DNA of 64,000 bases from Diplonema papillatum (taxonomy: Eukaryota; Euglenozoa; Diplonemea; Diplonemida; Diplonemidae), in NCBI GenBank assembly GCA_030068145.1, contig JAPJBO010000462.1, forward strand, positions 1 to 64,000. Reading direction: 5' to 3'. The translations under genes were made by a program, and so were the position numbers. A model generated the notes under the pieces. It ran no database searches. It was given only the letters and a program-made list of their open reading frames with translations, and was not told the DNA's origin. Shown here piece by piece: positions 197 through 56,573 of this stretch (its first letter is position 1; each line of letters opens with the position of its first letter).

Positions 197-2893
197 TTAC
201 AGCGTCGTGCAGAGTTCTTTCCAATACTTTCGTTGGATTGGAAGACGCGTATATGCGTCCGCAGGCATGCTCTTCGTCGGAACAAAAAAGAGCTTCAGAT
301 GGTTCCCCTGTCTCTTCAAGGTGTCTTGCAACGCTTTCAACCAGGGTATCGCAGCGTACTTGAGGGAGTACCCTTTCCGCACAATGCCTATCACGGCCCT
401 GTTGTCGACTCCCACCACGAGTAGGGTGTTCTCCTGGGGCTGACCCCGAACCAACATGAATAGAGCGTACAGCTCCTTCAGATAAATTGGAGACAAAGCC
501 AAACATCTCGGGAAGATTCCGTAGTGTGCTTGGCCGTCGATGTAGGCCCAACCGACACCACTCGCATCTGAAAATCCGAAAGCCCTGTCTGCAGGGAGCG
601 CCTGCCAGAATACGAAAGCATTTTCCTCCAAGTGGTGCACCGTCTGACGAAGGAGGCGGAGAAGCTCCCCATCCAATGTCTTCCAGCTTCGCCAGAATTC
701 GCTATCTCTAAGGTTACCATTTCGGGTGATGCCCGACATCCAGTGCAGCAGCTGCAGCAGATCGGCAAATGGCAGCCTCAACACATGCTGTCTCCAGATG
801 AGACACCCTGCGAGCCGCCACCACGACCGTAACGGAGCACCTGGGGCGAGCAAGAGTCTCTTGGCCGGTCCTATGACCTTCTCAACCCACGAGGGATCCA
901 AGCGCCACTTCTTGTCGCTCAGGTTAACCTGCAAGCCGAGCGTTATGAAGACGGAAGAAGGCTCCTTCTTCTCCCCAATTACAATCCCGTAATCGGAACA
1001 CAGTTCCTCAAACCTGCTACGAATCCTTTCCAGAACGACTTGGTCGTTGCTTAGGAAAAAACAGTTGTCGATCCAAGCGAAGCTATCCGACTCTGCTTGG
1101 TAACCCTCCGTGGCGAGCTGTGCAATCGACTCGGACACTGCCTGAGCCAGCTGAGGGGCGCCCCGGTATCCCATCGGCAAGACCTTCAATCGGTAAATCT
1201 TGTTGTCCACCCGGAAACAGAAGTAGCGTCGAACCTGTTCATTCAGTGGAAACTGGAAGAAAAATGACTTAAAGTCATATTCCGCCAAGTAATCGAAACC
1301 CATCATTTTTTCTATCATCGATGGGTAGGAAGGCAGTTTACATGGCGGGCATGGGGTGTGAGCAGTTGCCGCGTTCACGCCGGTGCATGCCAGAATGAAC
1401 CGAAGTTGTCCCTTTTTAGACTTTTCGACACAGAAGGCGGAGTGACACCATCTTCCCGTCTCCTTCCTACGAACTTTCTCAACGATGCCGAGGTTGAGTA
1501 AGCGAGACACGTGAGGCGAGAGTTTCTTGTTCGCCGGACCCGGAACGGTAGGCCGGCCACTACCTATCAGGGAGCGAATCTTGGCTTCTTGGACCCACTC
1601 GAAGTTGGGCCTCAGCGCCGGGAGGTCTGATACAAGCTTTTCCACGTTCACCGTGGAGCACAATGCTGGAGCCACGACCCCAGTGTAGCATGTGCTTGTC
1701 TTCGGCTTCGGCAGCTCTTGGTCCTGACTGAGCCAAGTCTCGGCGTAGTCGTAGGGGCCTGCGAAGTCCTTCAGCGTCACCGGCCATGTCACCGTGGGTT
1801 CGTCTACCTCGGTAGGAGGGGTGCCCAGGGGACATTCGGTACCCGAGTGGATCAGGCACTTCACTTTTGAAGTAGGCTCAGCGGAGCAGCAGAATCCTGG
1901 GCAGCCCCCCACAAGTGATGAGGGATGTACTGGCGGGTGGTTTCCACACTCTTGTGGCGACCCACCACCTGTGCCGCCTGCTCCCCCAATTCCGAGAAGC
2001 GAGCCACCCACGTCAATGCCGAATGCCGAAGGCCGTGCGACGTCAGATCGAGTCGAGCTCGCAGGACCATGTTGTACCGAGTGGTCCGAAGGTCGGGGTA
2101 GAACATGTACTTCTCGCCCAGCTGCAAACGGGCGTTCCACCAATCCAGCATCCACCTGACGAACCTTCCCGTCCTTTGCAGCAACAAAGGCTGTCCGCGA
2201 CCGCTCTGATCCGTCTTCCCGTTGACCAACATTAGGTTCTGGTCTCGAGGGCACAACAGGATGTGCTTCGTTTCGAGCCGGATCAGGTCGATTAGTCGAG
2301 CCCCGAGACTCCATTGGGTCGCCAGGGCGGCGCGATAGAGCCCAGTCATCTCGCGGACCGCTTCCTCCACCTGCTGGTTGCCCACCAATGTGCGAGACGT
2401 AAGAGCCCTGCGTTCGTACTCTTTTAGCTCGCGGCTCAGAGTTCTTCGGAACGCAGCCGTCGGGTCGATTGACAGCATCCGACGATACGTCATGTACTGC
2501 CGAGCGGACTGCGTCTGGAGCTCTCCCTTTTCCAGCTTCAGCTGGAGCCACATGAGGAAGATGTGGTCCTCGGGCAGGTGAGGATGGCTCCTTCTGACCA
2601 GAGAGGCGAAAGCCTCGCTGCGTGTCTGTACACTGGAGAGCGCAGCTGAGTTCGCATAGCACTGCGAAGCTCTTTCCAGAACTCTCCGGTGGAGATAAGG
2701 TATCTCGTCGGCAGAAATCCGTTCCCGTTTTCGGGAATTTGAAGCTGGGAGTGGAAGCCGGTAGCGGGTCGGAGCAGGTAGGTTGAGTCACCCCCTTTTC
2801 GCCTTCTTTACACGGTTCTCCTTCTCCACTTCGTTTTTTGGTGCCTGCGGGGTCTTTACCTGCAATAAGGCGTTTTGGAGATTGGTGGCCCAC
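197..2893 (-). CDS. E1 reverse transcriptase-RNase H (open frame overlapping gag end and YR)
   Basis: Open frame of 898 codons. The RT fold is recognisable from about residue 440. Motif A reads YDFKSFFFQF, motif B LPMGYRGAP and motif C AWIDNCFF at about residue 605, so the second catalytic Asp is Asn. RNase H follows at about residues 770-890 with FSDASGVGW, a Glu in LKELYAL, GVDNRAV and a terminal PADAYTRLP, the style typical of YR retroelements. The first ~340 codons overlap the YR gene in the -1 frame and look like low-complexity, Pro/Ser/Arg-rich sequence. The true start is unknown: the RT frame meets the gag stop as GTGA, so it may be reached by frameshift or reinitiation. Confidence 0.85.
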   Translation of the reverse strand: MGHQSPKRLIAGKDPAGTKKRSGEGEPCKEGEKGVTQPTCSDPLPASTPSFKFPKTGTDFCRRDTLSPPESSGKSFAVLCELSCALQCTDTQRGFRLSGQKEPSSPARGPHLPHVAPAEAGKGRAPDAVRSAVHDVSSDAVNRPDGCVPKNSEPRAKRVRTQGSYVSHIGGQPAGGGSGPRDDWALSRRPGDPMESRGSTNRPDPARNEAHPVVPSRPEPNVGQREDGSERSRTAFVAAKDGKVRQVDAGLVERPFAAGREVHVLPRPSDHSVQHGPASSTRSDVARPSAFGIDVGGSLLGIGGAGGTGGGSPQECGNHPPVHPSSLVGGCPGFCCSAEPTSKVKCLIHSGTECPLGTPPTEVDEPTVTWPVTLKDFAGPYDYAETWLSQDQELPKPKTSTCYTGVVAPALCSTVNVEKLVSDLPALRPNFEWVQEAKIRSLIGSGRPTVPGPANKKLSPHVSRLLNLGIVEKVRRKETGRWCHSAFCVEKSKKGQLRFILACTGVNAATAHTPCPPCKLPSYPSMIEKMMGFDYLAEYDFKSFFFQFPLNEQVRRYFCFRVDNKIYRLKVLPMGYRGAPQLAQAVSESIAQLATEGYQAESDSFAWIDNCFFLSNDQVVLERIRSRFEELCSDYGIVIGEKKEPSSVFITLGLQVNLSDKKWRLDPSWVEKVIGPAKRLLLAPGAPLRSWWRLAGCLIWRQHVLRLPFADLLQLLHWMSGITRNGNLRDSEFWRSWKTLDGELLRLLRQTVHHLEENAFVFWQALPADRAFGFSDASGVGWAYIDGQAHYGIFPRCLALSPIYLKELYALFMLVRGQPQENTLLVVGVDNRAVIGIVRKGYSLKYAAIPWLKALQDTLKRQGNHLKLFFVPTKSMPADAYTRLPIQRKYWKELCTTL
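1861..2787 (-). CDS. E1 tyrosine recombinase, in frame with gag after a UGA
   Basis: The frame is open from the codon after the gag UGA (2788-2790) to the stop at 1861. The first in-frame ATG is only at 2553, inside the N-terminal core-binding region. Catalytic-domain signatures in order are an Arg in LGARLIDL, a Lys in VNGKTDQ, the H-x-x-R box in SHGLRHSA, a His in VGRHKS and the nucleophile Tyr in TTRQYI. This is the full R-K-HxxR-H-Y set of the family, which would integrate a circular cDNA. Because the conserved N-terminal portion starts before any ATG, a Gag-YR readthrough product is more likely than independent initiation. Confidence 0.8.
   Translation of the reverse strand, partial: LNLPAPTRYRLPLPASNSRKRERISADEIPYLHRRVLERASQCYANSAALSSVQTRSEAFASLVRRSHPHLPEDHIFLMWLQLKLEKGELQTQSARQYMTYRRMLSIDPTAAFRRTLSRELKEYERRALTSRTLVGNQQVEEAVREMTGLYRAALATQWSLGARLIDLIRLETKHILLCPRDQNLMLVNGKTDQSGRGQPLLLQRTGRFVRWMLDWWNARLQLGEKYMFYPDLRTTRYNMVLRARLDLTSHGLRHSALTWVARFSELGEQAAQVVGRHKSVETTRQYIPHHLWGAAQDSAAPLSLLQK
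2788..2790 (-). other. E1 gag UGA, candidate readthrough/reinitiation site
   Basis: A single UGA followed by C separates gag from YR within one continuous frame. The same bases read GTGA in the overlapping -1 (RT) frame. Confidence 0.55.
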
Positions 2894-5994: not shown

Positions 5995-7365
5995 CTAGGG
6001 CTACTTTTCTGCACTACAGACGGACTTTTCTGCACTACGGACAGACTTTTCTGGACTACAGACCGACTTTTCTGCACTACGGACAGACTTTTCTGGACTA
6101 CAGACCGACTTTTCTGCACTACAGACCGACTTTTCTGGACTACAGACCGACTTTTCTGGACTACAGACCGACTTTTCTGGACTACAGACCGACTTTTCTG
6201 GACTACAGACCGACTTTTCTGGACTACAGACCGACTTTTCTGGACTACAGACCGACTTTTCTGGACTACAGACCGACTTTTCTGGACTACAGACCGACTT
6301 TTCTGGACTACAGACCGACTTTTCTGGACTACAGACCGACTTTTCTGGACTACAGACCGACTTTTCTGGACTACAGACCGACTTTTCTGGACTACAGACC
6401 GACTTTTCTGGACTACAGACCGACTTTTCTGGACTACAGACCGACTTTTCTGCACTACAGACCGACTTTTCTGGACTACAGACCGACTTTTCTGGACTAC
6501 AGACCGACTTTTCTGGACTACAGACCGACTTTTCTGGACTACAGACCGACTTTTCTGGACTACAGACCGACTTTTCTGGACTACAGACCGACTTTTCTGG
6601 ACTACAGACCGACTTTTCTGGACTACAGACCGACTTTTCTGGACTACAGACCGACTTTTCTGGACTACAGACCGACTTTTCTGGACTACAGACCGACTTT
6701 TCTGGACTACAGACCGACTTTTCTGGACTACAGACCGACTTTTCTGGACTACAGACCGACTTTTCTGGACTACAGACCGACTTTTCTGGACTACAGACCG
6801 ACTTTTCTGGACTACAGACCGACTTTTCTGGACTACAGACCGACTTTTCTGGACTACAGACCGACTTTTCTGGACTACAGACCGACTTTTCTGGACTACA
6901 GACCGACTTTTCTGGACTACAGACCGACTTTTCTGGACTACAGACCGACTTTTCTGGACTACAGACCGACTTTTCTGGACTACAGACCGACTTTTCTGGA
7001 CTACAGACCGACTTTTCTGGACTACAGACCGACTTTTCTGGACTACAGACCGACTTTTCTGGACTACAGACCGACTTTTCTGGACTACAGACCGACTTTT
7101 CTGGACTACAGACCGACTTTTCTGGACTACAGACCGACTTTTCTGGACTACAGACCGACTTTTCTGGACTACAGACCGACTTTTCTGGACTACAGACCGA
7201 CTTTTCTGGACTACAGACCGACTTTTCTGGACTACAGACCGACTTTTCTGGACTACAGACCGACTTTTCTGGACTACAGACCGACTTTTCTGGACTACAG
7301 ACCGACTTTTCTGGACTACAGACCGACTTTTCTGGACTACAGACCGACTTTTCTGGACTACAGAC
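5995..7365. repeat. 21-bp satellite, block 1 (~65 copies)
   Basis: Tandem 21-bp unit CTACAGACCGACTTTTCTGG plus A. The first few units are degenerate (TGCACTAC for TGGACTAC), the rest almost identical. Because 21 is divisible by 3 and the unit lacks stops in several frames, long artificial reading frames (LDYRPTF and others) appear. It is the left part of one array also seen at 7787-8479, 13131-15663 and 19343-19767. Confidence 0.95.
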
Positions 7366-7786
7366 TGCAGTTTACTGAGGGAATTGGCGCATTGAATTGC
7401 CGTCAGTGCTCGGAACCAATGTGAACCACTCCAACAGGAGGTCAACCTTAGCTAGTTAAAACGTTAAACAAATACAACAAGGGTGGAAGGAAGGTGATCG
7501 TCTTGGTCGGCGTTGGTACGTCTGGACCACTCCTTTCATCCCGTTCGCAAGTCAGTCTGTTGCTAGGTTCAGTGCATGTTTCCTTCCTCTTGACAGGCCT
7601 CGAAGATAGCGCATCAGTGGATTTGTTGAAATGGATTTATCTTAGCTTGAAGATACACGTAGCAGGCGTGGAGTTGCCATGACCTTCCTGGAGTTAGTTG
7701 AAATGGTTTTGAGTTGTTATCTTGAAGAGACCCAGCAGAATCCCCGACGTATCGAGCAGCAGGCAAGGAGATACCGCGACCATTCC
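7366..7786 (+). mobile_element. Mini YR element (terminal segments only) inside the 21-bp array
   Basis: 108-bp segment X (7366-7473), identical in layout to E2 copies at 8480 and 12708, is followed after 7 bases by 306-bp segment Y (7481-7786), matching E2 12402-12707. No internal genes. It interrupts the array at exactly the same unit position as E2: left edge after ACAGAC, right edge before CGACTTTT. It is either an internally deleted or a non-autonomous derivative of E2. Confidence 0.8.
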
Positions 7787-8479
7787 CGACTTTTCTGGAC
7801 TACAGACCGACTTTTCTGGACTACAGACCGACTTTTCTGGACTACAGACCGACTTTTCTGGACTACAGACCGACTTTTCTGGACTACAGACCGACTTTTC
7901 TGGACTACAGACCGACTTTTCTGGACTACAGACCGACTTTTCTGGACTACAGACCGACTTTTCTGGACTACAGACCGACTTTTCTGGACTACAGACCGAC
8001 TTTTCTGGACTACAGACCGACTTTTCTGGACTACAGACCGACTTTTCTGGACTACAGACCGACTTTTCTGGACTACAGACCGACTTTTCTGGACTACAGA
8101 CCGACTTTTCTGGACTACAGACCGACTTTTCTGGACTACAGACCGACTTTTCTGGACTACAGACCGACTTTTCTGGACTACAGACCGACTTTTCTGGACT
8201 ACAGACCGACTTTTCTGGACTACAGACCGACTTTTCTGGACTACAGACCGACTTTTCTGGACTACAGACCGACTTTTCTGGACTACAGACCGACTTTTCT
8301 GGACTACAGACCGACTTTTCTGGACTACAGACCGACTTTTCTGGACTACAGACCGACTTTTCTGGACTACAGACCGACTTTTCTGGACTACAGACCGACT
8401 TTTCTGGACTACAGACCGACTTTTCTGGACTACAGACCGACTTTTCTGGACTACAGACCGACTTTTCTGGACTACAGAC
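7787..8479. repeat. 21-bp satellite, block 2 (~33 copies)
   Basis: Homogeneous 21-bp units between the mini-element and E2. The reading frames running through it are array artefacts. Confidence 0.95.
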
Positions 8480-8587
8480 TGCAGTTTACTGAGGGAATTG
8501 GCGCATTGAATTGCCGTCAGTGCTCGGAACCAATGTGAACCACTCCAACAGGAGGTCAACCTTAGCTAGTTAAAACGTTAAACAAAT
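8480..8587 (+). repeat. E2 split direct repeat A1
   Basis: 108 bp, matching 12708-12815 and 7366-7473. Starts TGCAGTTTACTGAGGG directly after an array unit. Confidence 0.9.
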
Positions 8588-8696
8588 TGGACCGACTCTC
8601 CCTCGTCGAAACATCCGCCTTTCGGAGGTAGAGCGCTGGGCAGTATTCTTTTTCGGCGACACACCAGGAGAAGACAGACTGCGCGCGCACAAGATT

Positions 8697-9545
8697 ATGT
8701 GCGAGCTGCTCGAGTACGATGCCGGCTCTCCTGGCGCCGGCGTCGTTGGAGCGTGGGAAGGATGGAAGCTGGCGGCTACGCTAGCTGAGGCTGCTGTCGC
8801 CAATCCGCAGCTAGTTCGTCGCGTACTGAAGGGGGCGGGGCTCTGGAAGGACGACGCTCCGGAGCTACCCACGGTAGCTGGTGCCAGATTGCGGGCGACG
8901 GTGATTGCGCCGTCGGAGCCGAGCGATGCCTACGTACCCGAGGCACTTCCAGAACCAGTAACACCACCTGGAGAGATCGAGCGAGAAGGTCGGGGAGCGG
9001 AGGTGGCGGATTTGAAGGCCGAGCTGAGGGTGCTGACGGAGGTGGTCATGTCGTTGGCAGGACGCGCCCCCCCAAACATGAAGGCTGCGCGGGCCGCTAG
9101 GTTCCCGGTTGAGGAAACGGATGTCACGAAGTGGAGTGATGCTCTGGAGAAAGACCCCGAGGGACTTGCCCTGGCCTTGGAAGTGCGGTACGTGGCTGGC
9201 CGGAAACATCTGCCAGGCGGAGAGCAACTTGAGAGCGCTTTCTCGGCGCTCAAGTGCTGGCTTCTCGCCTCTGCCCAATTTGAGAACTGGGTCGAGTGCG
9301 CGGAGCAGGTGCGCCTTGGCCAGGAGCTCTTGATGCAGCTCCGTGTCCAGTTGAAGTTTGTGGAGGAGGGCGCGCCGCGCCGAGAGCTGCTAGACCGTAT
9401 GCGGCAGCGCGACGATGATGAGCTGGAACGGGCCACGGCTGGCTGGAAGAGAGACACACACCGGACGGAGAAGAAGAAGTTCGGCTTCAAGCCGAGAGGC
9501 AAGTCCGGATGGAAGCCGGGAAACGCCAAGGCCGGGGAAAAATGA
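8697..9545 (+). CDS. E2 Gag-like protein
   Basis: 282 aa with no obvious cysteine finger. The N-terminal third is Ala/Glu-rich. Residues ~170-245 contain a segment (ALKCWLLASAQFENW to ERATAGWKRD) that aligns with the N-terminal region of the E3 protein, so it is a conserved Gag domain of this family. The C-terminal tail is basic (EKKKFGFKPRGKSGWKPG), suiting nucleic-acid binding. It ends in UGA followed by C, after which the same frame continues as the recombinase. Confidence 0.7.
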   Translation: MCELLEYDAGSPGAGVVGAWEGWKLAATLAEAAVANPQLVRRVLKGAGLWKDDAPELPTVAGARLRATVIAPSEPSDAYVPEALPEPVTPPGEIEREGRGAEVADLKAELRVLTEVVMSLAGRAPPNMKAARAARFPVEETDVTKWSDALEKDPEGLALALEVRYVAGRKHLPGGEQLESAFSALKCWLLASAQFENWVECAEQVRLGQELLMQLRVQLKFVEEGAPRRELLDRMRQRDDDELERATAGWKRDTHRTEKKKFGFKPRGKSGWKPGNAKAGEK

Positions 9546-12418
9546 CTGGCGGCTCCCCACCAAGGCCTAGATGTGCCAGTTCCAAAGCAACAAGCCCCCC
9601 TACTAAAGATACCAACCAAGTTCGTACTTCGTCGCCTCCCGGTGTCTTCCAGGGTACCTCGCCCAAAGTCCGCTCCGTCTCCCCACCCGACTGTCGAAAC
9701 TGCGATTCCTTTGCCGCAACCCTCGCTCTTTTCACTCAAACCGTCCATCGACTCTTCGCGGGCCGTAGTGATGCAGCAACAGCCACCGACGAATGTGGGT
9801 CGTGCGGTTCAGCGAATGCTGACAAGCGGAGCTTCTGGTCCCACCGGCCGTACGATGGAGGTTCGAGTGACGCGTACGGGTGCCGAGGCACGGCTTGTGG
9901 CTCTGATGCAACAAATGTGGGCGGATTCTACTCTGCAGGACCGCCGCAGACTGTGGCGCCGACTCTGTGCATGGACCGTACAGCAGCAACTGCAACTGAA
10001 TGCGGACACAGCCTGCCTGTTTGTTGCGGCGACAGGGGTTCGTCCTCAGGGCCTCCTGGGGTACGCGAAGGCGCTTTCAGCGACATTTGCGGCGATGGGA
10101 TTAGAGAACCAGCCATTGCGGATGATGGCTTCGGCACTGCGCAACTCGGGGGCGGCGGTGCCGCGGGCTCAGGCAGTACCTGTGGACAGAGCGACACTTG
10201 TGCAGTGGGCGTTATCGCAGGCGCCGGCGGTGAAAATGTGCACTCTGCTGGCATGGAAATCGGCGTCGAGGTGGGCCGAGGCTGCCGCCCTGTCCTCGAA
10301 GCAGTTTCTGCGTGTCGCGCCGGAGGAGATCGTGATCGACTGGGAGCAAACCCCGAAAGGCCGACGGCGGAACCCGTTCAAACCGTCGAGGTTTGCCGTG
10401 ATAGTGGGCCCTCTGACGCCCGAACTGGCCGAGATGTTCCAGGCGAGTGCCCCCTTCGACGAACTGTGTTCTCTGACGACAACGGGCCTGGATTCGATGT
10501 GGACGCGATCCCCCGAGATGCGACGCTACTCGGCGCACTCCATCAAAAGGGGTGCAGTGACGCGTCTGTTCGACCTGATTGCGAGTGGCGTTTCGATCCC
10601 GCTGTGCAGCGTACACCGGCTCGCCAAGCACGAAGAACCGGGTGGGACGGAAGGAGCGATCTCGGAAACAACGATTCGTTACGGCGGCAATCTGCTCGCC
10701 CTCGCCCGGGTCCTCGGAACCGCGAAGGCGACGAAGCATCTCTGAGTCGCCATCTGCGGTCGGATCAGGCGTTTCGGACGCTGCGGGCACACTCGGTGAC
10801 GCGTCGCGGTGGGTCGACTCGGCTGCCTCGGACGCCGGCAGAGCGCCAGTCCCCTTTGCATGTGGCCGCAGTCAAGCCGATGGACGTCAACAAACTGCGT
10901 GCCCGCATGACCGAAAGCGTTCGCTCGCGCTTCGACGACACGTGGCGGAAGACGTTTTACCCGGACGTGAGCAGCATTCTGCCGTCGCTTGGATCCCCGT
11001 CGAGGCTGGTTTTGGGTCACGCGAAGCAGCTCGAGGAGTACGAGATAGCCGCGAGGGCAGCAGGCCCGGGCCCCTGGGCCTCGGTGCCGTTCACGGTTCT
11101 TGAGGAGAAAGACGGTTCTCTTCGGCAACGGTTCATTCTTTGGACCCTCGACGGAAACCGTGCGGCTGAAGCCGCCGGTTATGTTGCGTCCGTTCCGTTG
11201 GCTCACGTGTCCCACTACTTGGGCGCAGTACATGAAGAGTGCGGGACTACTCGTGACTTCCGCACGGGATTCTACGCAATAGAGATCCCGAAAGCCGTTC
11301 GACACTTGTTCCGTTTCACAACGGACGACGGCAGCTGGTGGGAGTTGAACCGTCTCCCGATGGGCCATGCATGTGCGCCCGAGCTCATGCACACGCTGGC
11401 AGCGGTGTCAGCCGGGCATCCCGACTTCGTGTTGCCGGAGCTCGTTGAGGGTGAAGTTGTTGTCCATGTTTGGGTCGACAACATTCGCTACGCTGGCTCA
11501 AGGCAGTGCGTTCTTGCAGCGACGCGGCGGTTGGACCAGACGGCGGTGGACTGCTCGCTGACATGGAAAGACGCTGATTCCCGGACGGCTGCACCCCGTT
11601 ATGAATTCATCGGGGTCGACTGGCGACACAGTGTCTCGCAGGTCTCGCTGAGCAGCAAGCTTTGCAGAAAGCTGATGACGACGCGGTACGAGCTCCAGGC
11701 TTCGTCGCTTTCTGCCGGTGATATCGAAGCCTTGGGGGGCAGGCTGCTCCACGCATCTGCAATTGCGGGCATTTTCCCCGGCTCGTTCTGGTTTGCGCTG
11801 AAATTCATGCGCAGAGTAACGAACTCGTTGAACCGAGGAACGAGGATGCCGACGGAACAAGTTTCCCTGTCTCCATGCATACGCTCATCTTTGCAAGGTT
11901 GGATAGACGCGGTCATGAGGCCACGGGCAATACCGACGAAGCTCCCTGTACCGTCGTTGACAGTGTTCGTTGATGCGAGCAAGAAGGGATGGGGTGGTGT
12001 TCTCGTGGACTCTCGTACGGCGGAGATAACCATCTTGGGGGCTCCCTGGTCAGCCGAGGAATCGAGGCTGCACATTAATGTTCTAGAGGCCATGGCCTTC
12101 GAACGTTCGGCAATGTCGATCCCGGACGCCTTTGCCGGTGGACGGATCGATGTTGTGGTGGACAATACCACCGTGCAGGGAGTAGCGCGGAAAGGGTTCA
12201 GCATGCGAGACGCAGACCTGAACAACGCGGTGGTCTCTGGTCTTGCCAGGGTGCGAACCCTTGGTTGCGCACTCTCTGTCCGCTGGGTGCGGAGCGAAGG
12301 GAACCCTGCAGATCTCCCATCGCGGGTGCCCCTGACGTCGCTGACTCCGAAGTCTATTGCTTCCGTCACACAGGCGGTGGTGGCATTCTTTACTGGCGGC
12401 GGGGTGGAAGGAAGGTGA
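9509..12418 (+). CDS. E2 reverse transcriptase-RNase H (long -1 overlap with YR)
   Basis: 969-codon open frame. The first ~410 codons overlap gag's end and the entire recombinase in the -1 frame. The RT proper starts near residue 450 (SPLHVAAVKPMDV). Motif A is RDFRTGFYAIEI, motif B LPMGHACAPELMHTL, and motif C VWVDNIRYAG at about residue 655 with Asn for the second Asp. RNase H spans about 815-955: VFVDASKKGWG, Glu in HINVLEAMA, VVVDNTTVQG, then GNPADLPSR. The stop lies inside the B1 repeat. The start could be the ATG at 9542 that overlaps the gag stop. Confidence 0.85.
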   Translation: MEAGKRQGRGKMTGGSPPRPRCASSKATSPPTKDTNQVRTSSPPGVFQGTSPKVRSVSPPDCRNCDSFAATLALFTQTVHRLFAGRSDAATATDECGSCGSANADKRSFWSHRPYDGGSSDAYGCRGTACGSDATNVGGFYSAGPPQTVAPTLCMDRTAATATECGHSLPVCCGDRGSSSGPPGVREGAFSDICGDGIREPAIADDGFGTAQLGGGGAAGSGSTCGQSDTCAVGVIAGAGGENVHSAGMEIGVEVGRGCRPVLEAVSACRAGGDRDRLGANPERPTAEPVQTVEVCRDSGPSDARTGRDVPGECPLRRTVFSDDNGPGFDVDAIPRDATLLGALHQKGCSDASVRPDCEWRFDPAVQRTPARQARRTGWDGRSDLGNNDSLRRQSARPRPGPRNREGDEASLSRHLRSDQAFRTLRAHSVTRRGGSTRLPRTPAERQSPLHVAAVKPMDVNKLRARMTESVRSRFDDTWRKTFYPDVSSILPSLGSPSRLVLGHAKQLEEYEIAARAAGPGPWASVPFTVLEEKDGSLRQRFILWTLDGNRAAEAAGYVASVPLAHVSHYLGAVHEECGTTRDFRTGFYAIEIPKAVRHLFRFTTDDGSWWELNRLPMGHACAPELMHTLAAVSAGHPDFVLPELVEGEVVVHVWVDNIRYAGSRQCVLAATRRLDQTAVDCSLTWKDADSRTAAPRYEFIGVDWRHSVSQVSLSSKLCRKLMTTRYELQASSLSAGDIEALGGRLLHASAIAGIFPGSFWFALKFMRRVTNSLNRGTRMPTEQVSLSPCIRSSLQGWIDAVMRPRAIPTKLPVPSLTVFVDASKKGWGGVLVDSRTAEITILGAPWSAEESRLHINVLEAMAFERSAMSIPDAFAGGRIDVVVDNTTVQGVARKGFSMRDADLNNAVVSGLARVRTLGCALSVRWVRSEGNPADLPSRVPLTSLTPKSIASVTQAVVAFFTGGGVEGR
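9543..9545 (+). other. E2 gag UGA with ATGA overlap
   Basis: The gag UGA overlaps an ATG of the RT frame (9542-9544) as ATGA. Downstream in the gag frame no further stop occurs before the end of the recombinase. Candidate site for readthrough (Gag-YR) and for termination-reinitiation (RT). Confidence 0.55.
9546..10745 (+). CDS. E2 tyrosine recombinase, in frame with gag after a UGA
   Basis: About 400 codons open from the gag UGA to the UGA at 10743-10745. The catalytic domain is C-terminal: an Arg in SASRWAEAAAL, a basic patch in TPKGRRRNPF, the H-x-x-R box in YSAHSIKRGA, a His in LAKHEEP and the candidate nucleophile Tyr in TTIRYGG. No ATG is needed if it is made as a Gag-YR fusion: the first codons after the UGA are sense and no start precedes the conserved region closely. 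It would integrate circular cDNA without an integrase. Confidence 0.8.
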   Translation: MAAPHQGLDVPVPKQQAPLLKIPTKFVLRRLPVSSRVPRPKSAPSPHPTVETAIPLPQPSLFSLKPSIDSSRAVVMQQQPPTNVGRAVQRMLTSGASGPTGRTMEVRVTRTGAEARLVALMQQMWADSTLQDRRRLWRRLCAWTVQQQLQLNADTACLFVAATGVRPQGLLGYAKALSATFAAMGLENQPLRMMASALRNSGAAVPRAQAVPVDRATLVQWALSQAPAVKMCTLLAWKSASRWAEAAALSSKQFLRVAPEEIVIDWEQTPKGRRRNPFKPSRFAVIVGPLTPELAEMFQASAPFDELCSLTTTGLDSMWTRSPEMRRYSAHSIKRGAVTRLFDLIASGVSIPLCSVHRLAKHEEPGGTEGAISETTIRYGGNLLALARVLGTAKATKHL

Positions 12419-12815
12419 TCGTCTTGGTCGGCGTTGGTACGTCTGGACCACTCCTTTCATCCCGTTCGCAAGTCAGTCTGTTGCTAGGTTCAGTGCATGT
12501 TTCCTTCCTCTTGACAGGCCTCGAAGATAGCGCATCAGTGGATTAGTTGAAATGGATTTATCTTAGCTTGAAGATACACGTAGCAGGCGTGGAGTTGCCA
12601 TGACCTTCCTGGAGTTAGTTGAAATGGTTTTGAGTTGTTATCTTGAAGAGACCCAGCAGAATCCCCGACGTATCGAGCAGCAGGCAAGGAGATACCGCGA
12701 CCATTCCTGCAGTTTACTGAGGGAATTGGCGCATTGAATTGCCGTCAGTGCTCGGAACCAATGTGAACCACTCCAACAGGAGGTCAACCTTAGCTAGTTA
12801 AAACGTTAAACAAAT
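12402..12815 (+). repeat. E2 B1-A2 junction of split direct repeats
   Basis: B1 (12402-12707) overlaps the 3' end of the RT gene and joins A2 (12708-12815) at ATTCC/TGCAG. This junction is the sequence a circularised copy would present to the recombinase. Confidence 0.88.
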
Positions 12816-12836
12816 TCCCACCCACCCTTGCCCCCG

Positions 12837-13130
12837 GGTGATCGTCTTGGTCGGCGTTGGTACGTCTGGACCACTCCTTTCATCCCGTTCGCAAGTCAGT
12901 CTGTTGCTAGGTTCAGTGCATGTTTCCTTCCTCTTGACAGGCCTCGAAGATAGCGCATCAGTGGATTAGTTGAAATGGATTTATCTTAGCTTGAAGATAC
13001 ACGTAGCAGGCGTGGAGTTGCCATGACCTTCCTGGAGTTAGTTGAAATGGTTTTGAGTTGTTATCTTGAAGAGACCCAGCAGAATCCCCGACGTATCGAG
13101 CAGCAGGCAAGGAGATACCGCGACCATTCC
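12837..13130 (+). repeat. E2 split direct repeat B2
   Basis: Copy of B1 from GGTGATCG onward, ending ATTCC directly before the 21-bp array resumes at CGACTTTT. Confidence 0.88.
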
Positions 13131-15663
13131 CGACTTTTCTGGACTACAGACCGACTTTTCTGGACTACAGACCGACTTTTCTGGACTACAGACCGACTTT
13201 TCTGCACTACAGACCGACTTTTCTGGACTACAGACCGACTTTTCTGCACTACAGACCGACTTTTCTGGACTACAGACCGACTTTTCTGGACTACAGACCG
13301 ACTTTTCTGGACTACAGACCGACTTTTCTGGACTACAGACCGACTTTTCTGGACCGACTTTTCTGGACTACAGACCGACTTTTCTGGACTACAGACCGAC
13401 TTTTCTGGACTACAGACCGACTTTTCTGGACTACAGACCGACTTTTCTTTTCTGGACTACAGACCGACTTTTCTGGACTACAGACCGACTTTTCTGGACT
13501 ACAGACCGACTTTTCTGGACTACAGACCGACTTTTCTGGACTACAGACCGACTTTTCTGGACTACAGACCGACTTTTCTGGACTACAGACCGACTTTTCT
13601 GGACTACAGACCGACTTTTCTGGACTACAGACCGACTTTTCTGGACTACAGACCGACTTTTCTGGACTACAGACCGACTTTTCTGGACTACAGACCGACT
13701 TTTCTGGACTACAGACCGACTTTTCTGGACTACAGACCGACTTTTCTGGACTACAGACCGACTTTTCTGGACTACAGACCGACTTTTCTGGACTACAGAC
13801 CGACTTTTCTGGACTACAGACCGACTTCTGGACTACAGACTTTTCTGGACTACAGACCGACTTTTCTGGACTACAGACCGACTTTTCTGGACTACAGACC
13901 GACTTTTCTGGACTACAGACCGACTTTTCTGGACTACAGACCGACTTTTCTGGACTACAGACCGACTTTTCTGGACTACAGACCGACTTTTCTGGACTAC
14001 AGACCGACTTTTCTGGACTACAGACCGACTTTTCTGGACTACAGACCGACTTTTCTGGACTACAGACCGACTTTTCTGGACTACAGACCGACTTTTCTGG
14101 ACTACAGACCGACTTTTCTGGACTACAGACCGACTTTTCTGGACTACAGACCGACTTTTCTGGACTACAGACCGACTTTTCTGGACTACAGACCGACTTT
14201 TCTGGACTACAGACCGACTTTTCTGGACTACAGACCGACTTTTCTGGACTACAGACCGACTTTTCTGGACTACAGACCGACTTTTCTGGACTACAGACCG
14301 ACTTTTCTGGACTACAGACCGACTTTTCTGGACTACAGACCGACTTTTCTGGACTACAGACCGACTTTTCTGGACTACAGACCGACTTTTCTGGACTACA
14401 GACCGACTTTTCTGGACTACAGACCGACTTTTCTGGACTACAGACCGACTTTTCTGGACTACAGACCGACTTTTCTGGACTACAGACCGACTTTTCTGGA
14501 CTACAGACCGACTTTTCTGGACTACAGACCGACTTTTCTGGACTACAGACCGACTTTTCTGGACTACAGACCGACTTTTCTGGACTACAGACCGACTTTT
14601 CTGGACTACAGACCGACTTTTCTGGACTACAGACCGACTTTTCTGGACTACAGACCGACTTTTCTGGACTACAGACCGACTTTTCTGGACTACAGACCGA
14701 CTTTTCTGGACTACAGACCGACTTTTCTGGACTACAGACCGACTTTTCTGGACTACAGACCGACTTTTCTGGACTACAGACCGACTTTTCTGGACTACAG
14801 ACCGACTTTTCTGGACTACAGACCGACTTTTCTGGACTACAGACCGACTTTTCTGGACTACAGACCGACTTTTCTGGACTACAGACCGACTTTTCTGGAC
14901 TACAGACCGACTTTTCTGGACTACAGACCGACTTTTCTGGACTACAGACCGACTTTTCTGGACTACAGACCGACTTTTCTGGACTACAGACCGACTTTTC
15001 TGGACTACAGACCGACTTTTCTGGACTACAGACCGACTTTTCTGGACTACAGACCGACTTTTCTGGACTACAGACCGACTTTTCTGGACTACAGACCGAC
15101 TTTTCTGGACTACAGACCGACTTTTCTGGACTACAGACCGACTTTTCTGGACTACAGACCGACTTTTCTGGACTACAGACCGACTTTTCTGGACTACAGA
15201 CCGACTTTTCTGGACTACAGACCGACTTTTCTGGACTACAGACCGACTTTTCTGGACTACAGACCGACTTTTCTGGACTACAGACCGACTTTTCTGGACT
15301 ACAGACCGACTTTTCTGGACTACAGACCGACTTTTCTGGACTACAGACCGACTTTTCTGGACTACAGACCGACTTTTCTGGACTACAGACCGACTTTTCT
15401 GGACTACAGACCGACTTTTCTGGACTACAGACCGACTTTTCTGGACTACAGACCGACTTTTCTGGACTACAGACCGACTTTTCTGGACTACAGACCGACT
15501 TTTCTGGACTACAGACCGACTTTTCTGGACTACAGACCGACTTTTCTGGACTACAGACCGACTTTTCTGGACTACAGACCGACTTTTCTGGACTACAGAC
15601 CGACTTTTCTGGACTACAGACCGACTTTTCTGCACTACAGACCGACTTTTCTGGACTACAGAC
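13131..15663. repeat. 21-bp satellite, block 3 (~120 copies)
   Basis: Longest block. Units are nearly identical, with three small irregularities near 13350, 13446 and 13826 that shift the frame. It separates E2 from E3. Confidence 0.95.
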
Positions 15664-15835
15664 TGTGGTTTACCGTGGGAATTGGAGCAAAGCGCATGGC
15701 AGGATGAGCACCCACCCAAACCAACACCAGAAGAGTTTTGGGAGGAGGCGGGGTTTCAAGTAGACAGTCACTCTGGCAAAACTAAAAGACCCAGCAGGAT
15801 CAAAGAATGTCAGTCACACCTTCCTCTTTCTTTTT
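15664..15835 (+). repeat. E3 split direct repeat A1'
   Basis: 172 bp, copied at 19155-19326. Confidence 0.88.
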
Positions 15836-15929
15836 TCTCTACCTCCTTTTTCGGTAAAGCACACGAACACCCACGACACGAGAAAACACGCGACACGCTT
15901 CCCTTTTCTCTTTTTTCGCTGATGTCGGG

Positions 15930-18875
15930 ATGAGAGACCGGAGGACGAGCGATGTGTGGCGGGACCTCGGGTGCGGTCAGCGCGCCGAGGACGTGATCCT
16001 CGAGCTCCAGCTCGAGTATGTTGTTCCGGGGCACGCGTTCGGGTCCGACTGCGTGTGCGCGTTGGAGAGTCGGTTCGAGCCCTTGCGGGAGTGGCTCTAC
16101 GTCGCAGAGTCGCTCGAGGGGTGGCGTGGTCGCCGTCAGTTCGTGTCGTTGGGAGAGCTGTTGCTGCGGGAACTGCGCATCGAGTTCGTGTGCGCCCGCG
16201 AGGGGTTCTCGCGGAAGGAGTTCCAGATGCAATTGCAGCTGGAGAGCGAGGACGCGCTGGACAGGGCGGCGGCTGGGCTCTGGTGGGAGCGCCGCCAGTC
16301 GGTCAGCGGGGCACCGCCTTCCGAGGAGAGGCCGCGCAGGCGGAGGAGGCGTATCCCTCCCGCGGTTCGGCGCCGTCGCAAGCGCGACCAGGGCGAAGCG
16401 GTGACGCCTCCGCGGCAGCCCGACCTTCCGAACGCTCCCCTCCTCCCTCCCCGACCAACCGACAACCAGTCAACCAACCCCACGGGAATGGTCATTGACG
16501 AACACCAGCGAGGCACTGCCTCTTCGTCTGACACCCGTGCCACAGCCCGCACTTCCCCGAATGCAGGGGGACCCTTAGCGCAGCGACTCAGCGCGGATTC
16601 AGGTTCGCAGAGCGACGCAGCGCGAGGCCCCGCAGGCGCAACGACCTGCGGTTACGCGGCGCATGACATCGGCCACAGCGGTGGTGTTGGGTGTGACAAC
16701 TCATGCCCCGATGCGCAGCGACCCGGTCCGGTTGGCGATTTCCCGTCAGGGGAACACGTAGCGTGCTCAGACGGTACGCTGCGACCCGGCCCGGAAGAGG
16801 ACCTTTTGGGGGCGAGAAGTTTCGCGGTGGGTGAGTGGAGTCCTGCCCTCGGGATGGCACCCAGGGTGGTAGATGGGCTAGGCCCTTTTTCGCTGCCAAC
16901 CCCTGTGCAACCAGGGATGGCACCGCTAGGTGTCACGGGGTTCGCCCCTTCTATTTTTGGTATGTGGGAGGCCGGCGCTCCTTTTAATTCTTCCCTGAAT
17001 GCTTTGAATGTGCCGGCCTTTGCAGGAGGAGCGCCTTCTCCAGGGGGGTTTTTCCCCATGACTTCCGCGCTTCAGAGCGTTCCGGAGTACAGGGTGGCAG
17101 ATCTGCTGCCCGCCGAAGAGTTACCCGCTCCGCCAGCCGTGCCCGCCTCTGGGTTTGCAGCATTGCCGCCGCACGTAGGGGATGATCTGGCTCCGCTGAG
17201 CGACGTTGTGGGCCGTCGGGTCCACGGCTTTACCCGACGTGCGCATAACACGCGTCTTCCACAGTCGCAGGCGGAAAAGGAGGCACCTCTCCACGTGGCG
17301 GCGGTGCCGGCCATGGACACGGAGGCGCTCCGGCTCAGGATGAAACCTGACGTACGCGTCAGATTTGACTCGGTCTGGAACGCCACGTTTTCCCCCGTTC
17401 GTGGCGCGAAAGAAGGAAACTCTTCCGAGGGCCAGCAGAGGAGGAGTCACCTCATGCACTCCCACGCGTCTGAGCTCGTCAGGCTTGGCATCGCGTCGCC
17501 TTCCGACACGCCGGGTACTTTCCGCAACGTGCCTTTTACGGTTGTGGAAGACAAGGCGGGCCGCCTGCGCCAACGGTTCATTCTGTGGACGCAGGAGGCT
17601 AACGACTTGCTGAGCCGCCAAGGCTACGTGGCTCAGGTACCATTGGGCCACGTCTCCGGGTATCTCGACGTAGTCGAGTCCGAGTGCGCCACAACGCGTG
17701 ATTTGCGTTGTGGCTTTTATCAAGTCGAAGTCCCGGAGGAGGCTCGAAAGAACTTCGGTTTCCTCGATGAACAAGGCAATGCCTACGTCCTAAATAGGCT
17801 GCCGATGGGACACTCGTGTGCACCAGAGCTGATGCACACGCTAACAGCAACGTTAGCAAGTCACCCAGACTTCGTTGGGCCTGAATTCACGGCCGACGGG
17901 GTAACAGTCCATGCCTGGGTGGACAACATTCGTATAAGTGGGTCCCGTGCCGCAGTGCTCTGCCAGACCGAGGAACTTGATCGGCTGGCCGCACGGGTCC
18001 ATGCTTCTTGGAAGCCCGAGGATAGCAACGACGCTTCCTCGGGCTACGATTTTATAGGGGTCACTTTTGACCACGGTCGGAAGACCGTCTCTCCTGCGGC
18101 TCGTCTGATCGAAAAGATCCGGGCCGTGGATTTGTCTAGCCCCACCGCCGGCGATTTAGAATCGCTCGGCGGTCGCCTGCTCCATGCGAGCGCAGTCGTG
18201 AACGCGTTCCCCGGCTCGTTCTGGTTCGCCGTCAAGTTCTTGCGACGGATAACGAACGGCCTCAACAAGGGGACCCGCACCCAATCAGAGACTGTGCTTG
18301 TGCCGGCCTCCGTACGGAGAGATTTGCGATCGTGGGTTGATTCTGTCGATGTGAACAGAAGGTTCACGCGTCCGTCCACGAACCGTCCGTACGCGGTCTA
18401 CGTGGACGCTTCCTTGCTGGGGTGGGGCGCTGTCCTGGTTGACCGGCAGACAGCAGAGCTGACCGTGTTGGGTGGCACATGGACCGAGCAGGAAGCTCGG
18501 CACCACATCAACACGCTAGAAGCACTGGCTCTGAAGAGAGCCGTGGATGCGCTACCCCCGTCAGTATTAGGTAGCGCAGTCGACGTTCATGTCGACAACA
18601 CTACCGTAGTCGGGGTGGCACGAAAGAAGAACTGCATGCTGAACAAATCATTGAATGACGCAGTTGTGCACGCGTTGACTCGACTACGGGATTTGAAATG
18701 TTCCTGGTCCATCTCGTGGATCAGCACGAAGGAGAACCCGGCCGATGTCCCTTCAAGAGTCGCCCTTGCTGCTGACGCCTCGGAAGAGGATCGACAGCGA
18801 CTTTTACTTGCGGTGAGGGCATTCTTTACTCGCGGGGGGGCAGGTGGCGTGACGTCGTCCCAGCGGCGATCATAG
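15930..18875 (+). CDS. E3 Gag-RT-RNase H in-frame fusion
   Basis: 981 aa. Residues ~40-125 align with the C-terminal Gag domain of E2 (PLREWLYVAESLEGW to LDRAAAGLWWERR). A long Pro/Gly/Arg-rich linker follows (about 125-430). RT covers about 445-740: PFTVVEDKAGRLRQRF, motif A RDLRCGFYQVEV, motif B LPMGHSCAPELMHTL, motif C AWVDNIRISG near 663. RNase H covers about 820-960: YVDASLLGWGA, HINTLEALA, VHVDNTTVVG, ENPADVPSR. The recombinase that separates gag and RT in E2 is absent, and gag and RT now share a frame, probably through an internal deletion. Confidence 0.83.
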   Translation: MRDRRTSDVWRDLGCGQRAEDVILELQLEYVVPGHAFGSDCVCALESRFEPLREWLYVAESLEGWRGRRQFVSLGELLLRELRIEFVCAREGFSRKEFQMQLQLESEDALDRAAAGLWWERRQSVSGAPPSEERPRRRRRRIPPAVRRRRKRDQGEAVTPPRQPDLPNAPLLPPRPTDNQSTNPTGMVIDEHQRGTASSSDTRATARTSPNAGGPLAQRLSADSGSQSDAARGPAGATTCGYAAHDIGHSGGVGCDNSCPDAQRPGPVGDFPSGEHVACSDGTLRPGPEEDLLGARSFAVGEWSPALGMAPRVVDGLGPFSLPTPVQPGMAPLGVTGFAPSIFGMWEAGAPFNSSLNALNVPAFAGGAPSPGGFFPMTSALQSVPEYRVADLLPAEELPAPPAVPASGFAALPPHVGDDLAPLSDVVGRRVHGFTRRAHNTRLPQSQAEKEAPLHVAAVPAMDTEALRLRMKPDVRVRFDSVWNATFSPVRGAKEGNSSEGQQRRSHLMHSHASELVRLGIASPSDTPGTFRNVPFTVVEDKAGRLRQRFILWTQEANDLLSRQGYVAQVPLGHVSGYLDVVESECATTRDLRCGFYQVEVPEEARKNFGFLDEQGNAYVLNRLPMGHSCAPELMHTLTATLASHPDFVGPEFTADGVTVHAWVDNIRISGSRAAVLCQTEELDRLAARVHASWKPEDSNDASSGYDFIGVTFDHGRKTVSPAARLIEKIRAVDLSSPTAGDLESLGGRLLHASAVVNAFPGSFWFAVKFLRRITNGLNKGTRTQSETVLVPASVRRDLRSWVDSVDVNRRFTRPSTNRPYAVYVDASLLGWGAVLVDRQTAELTVLGGTWTEQEARHHINTLEALALKRAVDALPPSVLGSAVDVHVDNTTVVGVARKKNCMLNKSLNDAVVHALTRLRDLKCSWSISWISTKENPADVPSRVALAADASEEDRQRLLLAVRAFFTRGGAGGVTSSQRRS

Positions 18876-19326
18876 CTTGCCTCATGGTCGGTGTTCTTCC
18901 CCTTCGTTTGTTCTTTATGTGAGTTCCATCCTGACTGGTTTTTCACCGTTCTCTTTCGATTGGAGTGGCCAGGGCGAAACGGGACGATCCCGTCAAGTGG
19001 GAGAGACCCACTACGAAACAGATCCGAGCAAGCGGAAAAAAGAGCCCAGACCGAGAGAGAGAGTGTGTGTGCGGCCAGAGAAACGCCAGACAACGACTGC
19101 AGATCCCGCCTCAGAACGAGTGCGATGATGCCAGAAGAAGCCAGCAACAATTCCTGTGGTTTACCGTGGGAATTGGAGCAAAGCGCATGGCAGGATGAGC
19201 ACCCACCCAAACCAACACCAGAAGAGTTTTGGGAGGAGGCGGGGTTTCAAGTAGACAGTCACTCTGGCAAAACTAAAAGACCCAGCAGGATCAAAGAATG
19301 TCAGTCACACCTTCCTCTTTCTTTTT
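18837..19326 (+). repeat. E3 B1'-A2' junction
   Basis: B1' starts at the end of the ORF (GGTGGCGTGACGTCG) and joins A2' at ATTCC/TGTGG, the same boundary word as E2. Confidence 0.82.
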
Positions 19327-19342
19327 CCCACCCTCCATCCCA

Positions 19343-19767
19343 CAGACCGACTTTTCTGGACTACAGACCGACTTTTCTGGACTACAGACCGACTTTTCTG
19401 CACTACAGACCGACTTTTCTGGACTACAGACCGACTTTTCTGGACTACAGACCGACTTTTCTGGACTACAGACCGACTTTTCTGGACTACAGACCGACTT
19501 TTCTGGACTACAGACCGACTTTTCTGGACTACAGACCGACTTTTCTGGACTACAGACCGACTTTTCTGGACTACAGACCGACTTTTCTGGACTACAGACC
19601 GACTTTTCTGGACTACAGACCGACTTTTCTGGACTACAGACCGACTTTTCTGGACTACAGACCGACTTTTCTGGACTACAGACCGACTTTTCTGGACTAC
19701 AGACCGACTTTTCTGGACTACAGACCGACTTTTCTGCACTACAGACCGACTTTTCTCCACTACAGAC
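19343..19767. repeat. 21-bp satellite, block 4 (~20 copies)
   Basis: Right end of the array. The last units degenerate (TCCACTAC) before unique sequence at about 19768. Confidence 0.95.

Positions 19768-22093: not shown

Positions 22094-56573
<34,480 letters not shown>

What the first reader, a model, noticed from the sequence alone, without database searches (positions are those of the whole stretch)
7360..15670. YR elements inserted at the same nucleotide of a 21-bp satellite unit
The mini-element, E2 and E3 all have left ends after ...CTACAGAC (7365, 8479, 15663). The mini-element and E2 right ends both resume at CGACTTTT (7787, 13131). Same orientation, same position, five junctions. This looks like site-specific targeting of a satellite by a tyrosine recombinase, with the array blocks being one ~5-kb satellite.
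Basis: seen in the sequence. Interest (0 to 1): 0.88.

Follow-up and report, generated by a model that had tools for sequence, protein, structure and literature searches.

The report
Jumping genes homing into tandem repeats
In the marine flagellate Diplonema papillatum, two related mobile elements, one of which carries a Cre-like recombinase, are found almost only inside stretches of short repeated DNA, set in at one exact nucleotide of the repeat unit, and in many unrelated repeats rather than only the one first noticed.

Summary
In detail: the mini-element (7366-7786), E2 (8480-13130) and E3 (from 15664) give five clean junctions at one nucleotide of a 21-bp unit (...CTACAGAC|CGACTTTT...). 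E3's right end is truncated. The reading is too narrow. The genome is Diplonema papillatum (271 Mb), and the elements are not specific to this satellite, which is nearly confined to this locus. Of 40 readable left ends of exact E2/E3 copies, 39 lie in tandem arrays, against 1 of 20 random sites. With a subfamily included, the arrays have about a dozen unrelated units: (CTA)n, 11-bp, 21-bp, 68-bp, 71-bp and others. In (CTA)n, 46 of 46 junctions are in one phase. All 34 readable right ends return to an array, and 19 of 19 joined flank pairs restore the array best at the same offset, without a target duplication. E2 has Gag-like, Cre-fold recombinase and RT/RNase H genes with A1...B1-A2-B2 repeats, like the trypanosomatid elements VIPER and TATE. 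E3 lacks a recombinase and probably borrows one. TATE in telomeric hexamers is the closest precedent; I found no report of targeting many internal arrays. What marks an array (chromatin, modified base, DNA structure, motif density) is unknown; retention bias is not excluded.

The parts
6001..7365 (+). 21-bp array, block 1 (65 units), left of the mini-element
   Evidence: unit CGACTTTTCTGGACTACAGAC
7366..7786 (+). mini-element: A repeat (108 bp) joined by a deletion to the B repeat
   Evidence: B part 289 of 290 identical to B1 of E2, with some pre-B1 sequence of E2 retained, so an A1-deletion-B1 derivative
7787..8479 (+). 21-bp array, block 2 (33 identical units)
8480..13130 (+). E2: tyrosine-recombinase retroelement with split direct repeats A1 ... 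B1-A2-B2
8480..8588 (+). A1 repeat of E2 (identical to A2 12708-12816)
   Evidence: 109-bp exact match
8697..9545 (+). ORF1 of E2, 282 aa, Gag-like by position only
   Evidence: no Pfam match
9573..10745 (+). tyrosine recombinase ORF of E2, 390 aa, Cre-like fold
9509..12418 (+). overlapping ORF of E2 with the RT/RNase H region in its second half
   Evidence: RNase H trace in Pfam, 14.7 bits, below the cut-off of 24.8; RT part of P0016 matches it at 72.5% identity
12414..12707 (+). B1 repeat of E2 (identical to B2 12837-13130)
   Evidence: 294-bp exact match
12708..12816 (+). A2 repeat of E2; the B1|A2 join is the inferred circle junction ATTCC|TGCAG
12837..13130 (+). B2 repeat, right end of E2 (...ATTCC)
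13131..15663 (+). 21-bp array, block 3 (119 units found, with small irregularities near 13340-13450)
15664..19341 (+). E3: related retroelement without a recombinase gene; right end truncated
15664..15835 (+). A1 repeat of E3 (identical to A2 19155-19326)
   Evidence: 172-bp exact match
15930..18875 (+). single long ORF of E3, 981 aa, RT/RNase H
   Evidence: Pfam RT_RNaseH 31.4 bits, cut-off 24.8; homologues
18848..19154 (+). B1 repeat of E3 (approximate start), ending CAATTCC
19155..19326 (+). A2 repeat of E3; followed by a 15-bp linker, then the array, B2 missing
19342..19767 (+). 21-bp array, block 4 (20 units)

Best explanation
E2 and E3 are VIPER/TATE-like retroelements of Diplonema papillatum, E2 with its own tyrosine recombinase, that settle in tandem repeat arrays. 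Shown: copies of both families sit in arrays of many unrelated units; the junction falls at one position of the unit, after a C that is usually preceded by A; joining the flanks restores the array with no net gain or loss beyond one ambiguous C; E2 carries a Cre-fold recombinase; E3 does not. Inferred: the RNA is copied to circular DNA whose join, ATTCC|TG(CA/TG)GTTTAC, is bound by the E2 recombinase through the inverted arms around it; the recombinase swaps strands at C with a C in the target, so the circle is inserted cleanly; E3 and the short A-B forms are moved in trans through the shared end sequence. Site choice has two layers: something common to tandem arrays brings the complex there, and AC| sets the nucleotide.
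For: E3: 49 exact 25-mers, 23 of them internal A2 and 26 left ends; 26 of 26 lie in tandem repeats: 19 (CTA)n, 7 others. E2: of 34 exact 25-mers, 19 are internal; of 15 left ends, 13 lie in arrays, 1 does not (C176, L109), 1 was not seen because it is 50 bp from a contig end. Random sites: 1 of 20. E3 plus TATGG subfamily: 144 ends, 52 internal, 46 at TACTACTAC|, 46 other; the other two (CTA) phases 0 and 0. In-phase (CTA) sites number 59,138, about 0.01% of oriented positions, yet take 46 of the 92 ends not recognised as internal. Right ends: 34 of 34 readable ones (20 E2, 14 E3) return to arrays. Empty sites: 19 of 19 pairs fit best at the same offset, one of them tied with a neighbouring offset; 16 at 100%, 2 at 97.5%, 1 at 80%. 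(CTA)n arrays run for hundreds of bp on both sides of most copies. Recombinase fold. No recombinase in E3; eight E3 copies share the same 3,491-bp A1-A2 spacing (positions). Kinship: Trypanosoma grayi protein P0121 at E 7e-114.
Against: The rule is not absolute: in a sample of 10 TATGG-subfamily left ends that are not in (CTA)n, 6 are in arrays and 4 are not, of which 2 (L154, L155) may not be true left ends; in an earlier set (seven TATGG, one TTTGG) 7 of 8 were in arrays. One site (C419) had G, not C, at the exchange position. Two of the 34 right ends deviate from the standard ATTCC end: C307 lacks the second C, and C552 reads ATT|ACTACTAC. Several (CTA)n arrays share a common left neighbour sequence of about 300 bp, so the host arrays are not all independent genomic contexts. 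Circular DNA, recombinase activity and trans-mobilisation were not tested. The last residue of the HxxR motif reads K in all 28 sequences, and RT motif C reads xDN, so catalysis is assumed by homology.
Confidence: 0.8

Rival explanations
1. Retention, not targeting: the elements insert widely at AC| sites, but only copies in arrays survive or are multiplied by unequal exchange, because arrays are gene-free.
For: Only standing copies were seen. Several elements can lie in one array (and the window). Few single-copy insertions might persist where genes are dense.
Against: Arrays are about 5% of random sites (1 of 20), while 52% of the assembly is repeats by the genome paper (PMC10161547, section 8), so ample non-genic, non-array DNA exists. 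In the window the repeats of one copy are identical (A1=A2 in E2 and E3, B1=B2 in E2), so these copies are young and selection has had little time; other copies were not dated. A related end sequence (GGCAC/GGAGC family, about 500 matches) lies outside arrays in 10 of 11 flanks, although some of those may not be true ends. Left-array lengths and element types differ between sites sharing a neighbour.
Confidence: 0.12
2. A sequence motif only: the recombinase reads a degenerate motif around AC| that happens to be dense in these arrays, and repetition as such plays no part.
For: -1 is C and -2 is A at most sites; (CTA)n offers such a site every 3 bp and is the favourite; single-copy exceptions end in TAC (L111, L158, L159).
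Against: TAC alone would put about 0.7% of insertions in (CTA)n by a uniform-composition estimate, against 46 of 92 seen. Target units of unrelated sequence (ATATGACCCC, TATAAGCACCTTTGATTGTTG, 68-bp, 71-bp) share little beyond AC or C. In the 21-bp unit one of four AC positions took 3 of 3.
Confidence: 0.2
3. One reading: recognition of this 21-bp satellite specifically.
For: Three insertions at one nucleotide of the unit.
Against: The unit is nearly confined to this locus. Of the 40 readable exact left ends, 37 lie elsewhere, and 36 of those 37 are in other arrays.
Confidence: 0.02
4. One insertion in the window, with the other junctions copied by array expansion or recombination.
For: The mini-element and E2 share nearly identical ends.
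Against: They differ inside; E3 is another family at the same position; the same precision is seen on many contigs in arrays of different sequence.
Confidence: 0.04
5. Assembly artefact joining elements to collapsed repeats.
For: Arrays are hard to assemble, and array lengths may be wrong; the genome paper itself warns of collapsed repeats.
Against: Left and right flanks of one copy carry the same array in phase at 19 of 19 pairs, at the same offset, in several unrelated arrays.
Confidence: 0.02

Closest known systems
TATE of Leishmania braziliensis (telomere-associated YR retroelement)
   Same: Euglenozoan YR retroelement with Gag-like, YR and RT/RH genes and split direct repeats; inserted at one position of a tandem repeat, the telomeric hexamer GGG^TTA (PMC6681497, passages; PMC2696322, passages).
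   Different: Single target, chromosome ends, and one source reports a TT duplication. Here the targets seen are arrays of many other sequences, with no duplication beyond at most one C.
VIPER and its short form SIRE in trypanosomatids
   Same: A1 ... B1-A2-B2 repeats, no target duplication, and a short A2-B2 form (PMC12278014 and PMC6681497, passages), like the C85 A-B copy. RT relative in Trypanosoma grayi, 32% identity.
   Different: No array targeting is described for VIPER in the passages I read. E3 is an RT-bearing family without a recombinase.
Ngaro elements of Cafeteria burkhardae
   Same: YR retroelements with A1-ORFs-B1A2B2 and solo A-B copies; some types prefer a class of target, endogenous virophages (PMC8547959, passages).
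   Different: Gene order there is Gag, RT/RH, YR; the preference is for a class of element, not for a nucleotide in tandem arrays.
Cre and other tyrosine recombinases
   Same: Fold of the E2 recombinase; precise strand exchange without a duplication (for Cre by recall).
   Different: 12-16% identity to Cre chains; K instead of R at the last position of HxxR, judged by spacing only.

Membership tests
YR retrotransposons (order DIRS) | Encodes RT/RNase H and a tyrosine recombinase instead of a DDE integrase | tested here: met
   E2: RT/RH ORF and Cre-fold ORF. E3 has RT/RH only, so E3 taken alone does not meet it.
YR retrotransposons (order DIRS) | No target-site duplication | tested here: met
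   19 of 19 pairs best at one offset with no duplication beyond one ambiguous C
VIPER/TATE | Gag-like ORF, then overlapping YR and RT/RH ORFs | tested here: met
   E2 ORFs 8697-9545, 9573-10745, 9509-12418; the Gag role is by position only. E3 has one long ORF and no YR.
VIPER/TATE | Split direct repeats A1 ... B1-A2-B2 | tested here: met
   for E2. E3 lacks B2 in this window, but 13 other E3 loci have A2 followed by B2 (a fourteenth, C121, is a short A-B form)
VIPER/TATE | RT or YR groups with VIPER or TATE in a tree | tested here: inconclusive
   RT profile finds a Trypanosoma grayi protein, E 7e-114, named TcC31.12; no call shows that this is VIPER, and no tree was built
TATE | Inserted in telomeric hexamer repeats | tested here: not met
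   Targets seen are arrays of other units
Tyrosine recombinases | Catalytic R-K-HxxR-(H/W)-Y set | tested here: inconclusive
   R233, H322, K352-H353 invariant, K262, R326 and Y370 at 90% or more in 28 sequences; the last position of HxxR reads K325, with R326 next to it. The assignment of these residues to catalytic roles is by spacing and recall.
Tyrosine recombinases | DNA cleavage and joining activity | not testable with these tools
   no biochemistry

The most novel reading that the evidence does not exclude
The integration complex senses tandem repetition itself rather than any sequence: a state shared by arrays in this nucleus (for instance base J or 5mC chromatin, or slipped and unwound DNA) recruits the elements, and the recombinase needs only AC|. 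TATE at telomeric hexamers would then be one case of a general euglenozoan array-seeking habit, and E3 would be a retroelement that has discarded its integration enzyme and lives on that of E2.
Probability: 0.4. Interest if true: 0.85.

Novelty: new variant of a known kind. Interest (0 to 1): 0.72.

Why it matters
Elements that target one repeat (telomeres, rDNA, snRNA genes) are known. A precise recombinase-based element found in arrays of many unrelated units is not something I found in print (searches, in the held open library only). It gives a natural readout of what cells treat as a tandem array, offers a model of a safe niche (insertion into gene-free DNA at the cost of interrupting an array), and suggests a testable division of labour between a recombinase-bearing element and a recombinase-less one.

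Tried and rejected
Satellite-specific recognition was rejected (unit nearly confined to one locus; other arrays used). Single-junction expansion was rejected genome-wide. Segmental duplication was checked by comparing non-array flanks of 27 entries held with 1.4 kb on the left (two entries, L009 and L061, are the same site): many share pieces of repeats, but array lengths and element types differ. Pfam finds no recombinase in E2 or in the 28 aligned sequences, and the PDB sequence search found only a chance hit; the assignment rests on the fold. The GGCAC/GGAGC family was used as a control but is weak: two of the 11 flanks are identical and several end like internal repeats. My periodicity test with periods up to 45 missed the 68- and 71-bp arrays at two E2 sites; these were found with longer periods, and the degenerate C85 array was judged by eye (0.6-0.65). 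The tandem calls for the 26 E3 left ends were made by eye and agree with the scores, in which copies with the same 60-bp flank and element start are merged. Two further B ends listed (C14, C48) were not fetched. Expected frequencies in the enrichment estimate assume uniform base composition. Base J in Diplonema repeats is recalled, apart from the statement that the biosynthesis genes exist. That TcC31.12 names a VIPER protein is recalled and was not confirmed. The canonical RT and recombinase motifs are recalled.
Full report
Observation. The 21-bp unit CGACTTTTCTGGACTACAGAC forms four blocks in the window, at 6001-7365, 7787-8479, 13131-15663 and 19348-19767, all on the + strand. Between them lie a 421-bp mini-element, E2 (8480-13130) and E3 (15664 to about 19341). 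The sixth, E3's right end, is not comparable: its B2 repeat is missing and the array resumes after a 15-bp linker.

Host. Homologues are named as Diplonema papillatum proteins, and the longest contigs listed for P0003, P0044 and P0049 (328,454; 330,943; 293,918 bp) equal lengths of contigs of this assembly. The genome paper (passages and section 8 of PMC10161547) mentions ORFs resembling TATE among DNA transposons; a term search of its main text found no tyrosine recombinase, DIRS or satellite.

Where the copies sit. For E3, 49 exact 25-mers of the end exist. 23 are internal (preceded by AACAATTCC) and 26 are left ends, all seen: 26 of 26 abut a tandem array: 19 (CTA)n, 3 ATATGACCCC-type, and one each of the window's 21-bp unit, a 21-bp TATAAGCACCTTTGATTGTTG unit, a GGTTACA array of period 71 and an ACTAC-type array. 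For E2, 34 exact 25-mers exist: 19 internal, 15 left ends; 13 lie in arrays ((CTA)n, ATATGACCCC, GGTTACA/TGTAACC, a 68-bp unit, the window's unit), 1 does not (C176, L109) and 1 was not seen (C1635, 50 bp from the contig end). Together 39 of 40 readable. At 20 random places 1 is in an array, and 4.7% of 1,995 positions elsewhere in the window score as periodic. In the TATGG subfamily of E3, a first set of 8 left ends (one of them TTTGG) has 7 in arrays, and a second set of 10, chosen among those not in (CTA)n, has 6 in arrays, adding (CCTA)n and periods between 21 and 45 bp, and 4 not.

Phase and orientation. Over E3 and its TATGG subfamily the 22-mer end occurs 144 times: 46 after TACTACTAC, 52 internal, 46 other. 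The other two phases of (CTA)n have 0 and 0. The opposite strand of (CTA)n was not counted, but no left flank that I saw is of that kind. In-phase (CTA) sites number 59,138, about 0.01% of oriented positions and about 177 kb of DNA. Right ends: 20 E2 and 14 E3 right ends could be read and all 34 return to an array; in 32 the element ends ATTCC as expected, while C307 lacks the second C and C552 reads ATT|ACTACTAC. Two E3 loci were left out, the window's truncated copy and one whose right end falls at a contig end (C1036); two E2 B ends listed (C14, C48) were not fetched. For 19 copies with both flanks I joined the flanks and compared the join with the copy's own array at six offsets: 19 of 19 fit best at the offset where the element is TG...ATTCC (C984 tied with a neighbouring offset); 16 match at 100%, 2 at 97.5%, 1 (C419) at 80%, where the target unit has G and the left junction carries C. 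That case suggests that the C belongs to the exchange region and that a mismatch can be tolerated. Thus insertion is clean, without a duplication longer than one ambiguous C.

Independence. Arrays continue for about 25 to 1,350 bp to the left by an automatic walk (5 in one degenerate case) and, in 15 (CTA)n loci, for about 310 to 1,010 bp to the right before ending in different sequences or another element. Several (CTA)n arrays share a left neighbour of up to about 300 bp at 83-98% identity, so some host arrays belong to a dispersed repeat; the distance from the neighbour to the insertion and the type of element differ. Some arrays hold two or more elements, as in the window (for example E2 then E3 on C679, E2 then a TATGG copy on C22).

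Mechanism. The most likely course is reverse transcription to a circle, binding of the E2 recombinase to the arms around the ATTCC|TG join, and exchange at C with a C in the target. Shown: the junctions, the predicted fold, the absence of a recombinase in E3. Inferred: the circle, the trans use by E3 and by A-B forms, and the reason for arrays. The arrays share no sequence beyond AC| at most sites, so a feature of arrays as such is a good candidate: chromatin, modified base (genes for base J and 5mC are present), or DNA structure. Motif density and retention are the live alternatives.

Comparison. VIPER and TATE have the same gene set and repeats and make no duplications by one account, and VIPER's SIRE equals A2-B2, like the A-B copy on C85. 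TATE is inserted at one position of telomeric hexamers, with a TT duplication by another account. The RT profile reaches a Trypanosoma grayi protein, which shares the xDN motif. I therefore call E2 VIPER/TATE-like; formal membership needs a tree. Novelty: a new variant of a known kind.

Noticed in passing
47069-47973, - strand: A decayed relative of E2 with recombinase and RT remnants interrupted by stops.
   Followed up: partly
E2/E3 RT (window 11450-11500 and 17900-17950) and P0121: RT motif C reads V-D-N (WVDN), also WIDN in the Trypanosoma grayi protein, where D-D is usual by recall; the first D is invariant in 16 homologues.
   Followed up: no
E2 recombinase residues 322-326: HSIKRG: K, not R, at the last position of HxxR in all 28 sequences, with R or K next in nearly all.
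   Followed up: no
L063, L064, L066, L069, L073, L007, L008 left flanks: A common sequence of up to about 300 bp precedes several (CTA)n arrays, as if the array were part of a dispersed repeat.
   Followed up: partly
L043/L044 (C983): The 68-bp array hosting an E2 copy has the same period as the 68-bp mitochondrial-derived nuclear array described in the genome paper; identity not tested.
   Followed up: no
genome, GGCAC/GGAGC variant of the E2 end: About 500 of 539 matches with up to 2 mismatches to the E2 end are not exact; many belong to another family that in 10 of 11 flanks seen is not in arrays.
   Followed up: partly
C307 (L024, L025) and C552 (L021, L048): C307 has A-B units in tandem (A-B-A-B) and a right junction ATTC|TATG lacking the usual second C; C552 ends ATT|ACTAC.
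   Followed up: partly
30788-37423: Large 187-bp tandem array, about 36 copies, in which no E2/E3 end was found (searches list ends of this contig only at 7366, 8480, 12708, 15664 and 19155 among exact matches).
   Followed up: no
42897-45194, + strand: ORF with a 9-bp repeat (CCAGGACGA) scoring as collagen repeats.
   Followed up: no
200-2893 (-) and 22983-26000 (+): Two further ORFs with reverse transcriptase domains (RVT_1).
   Followed up: no
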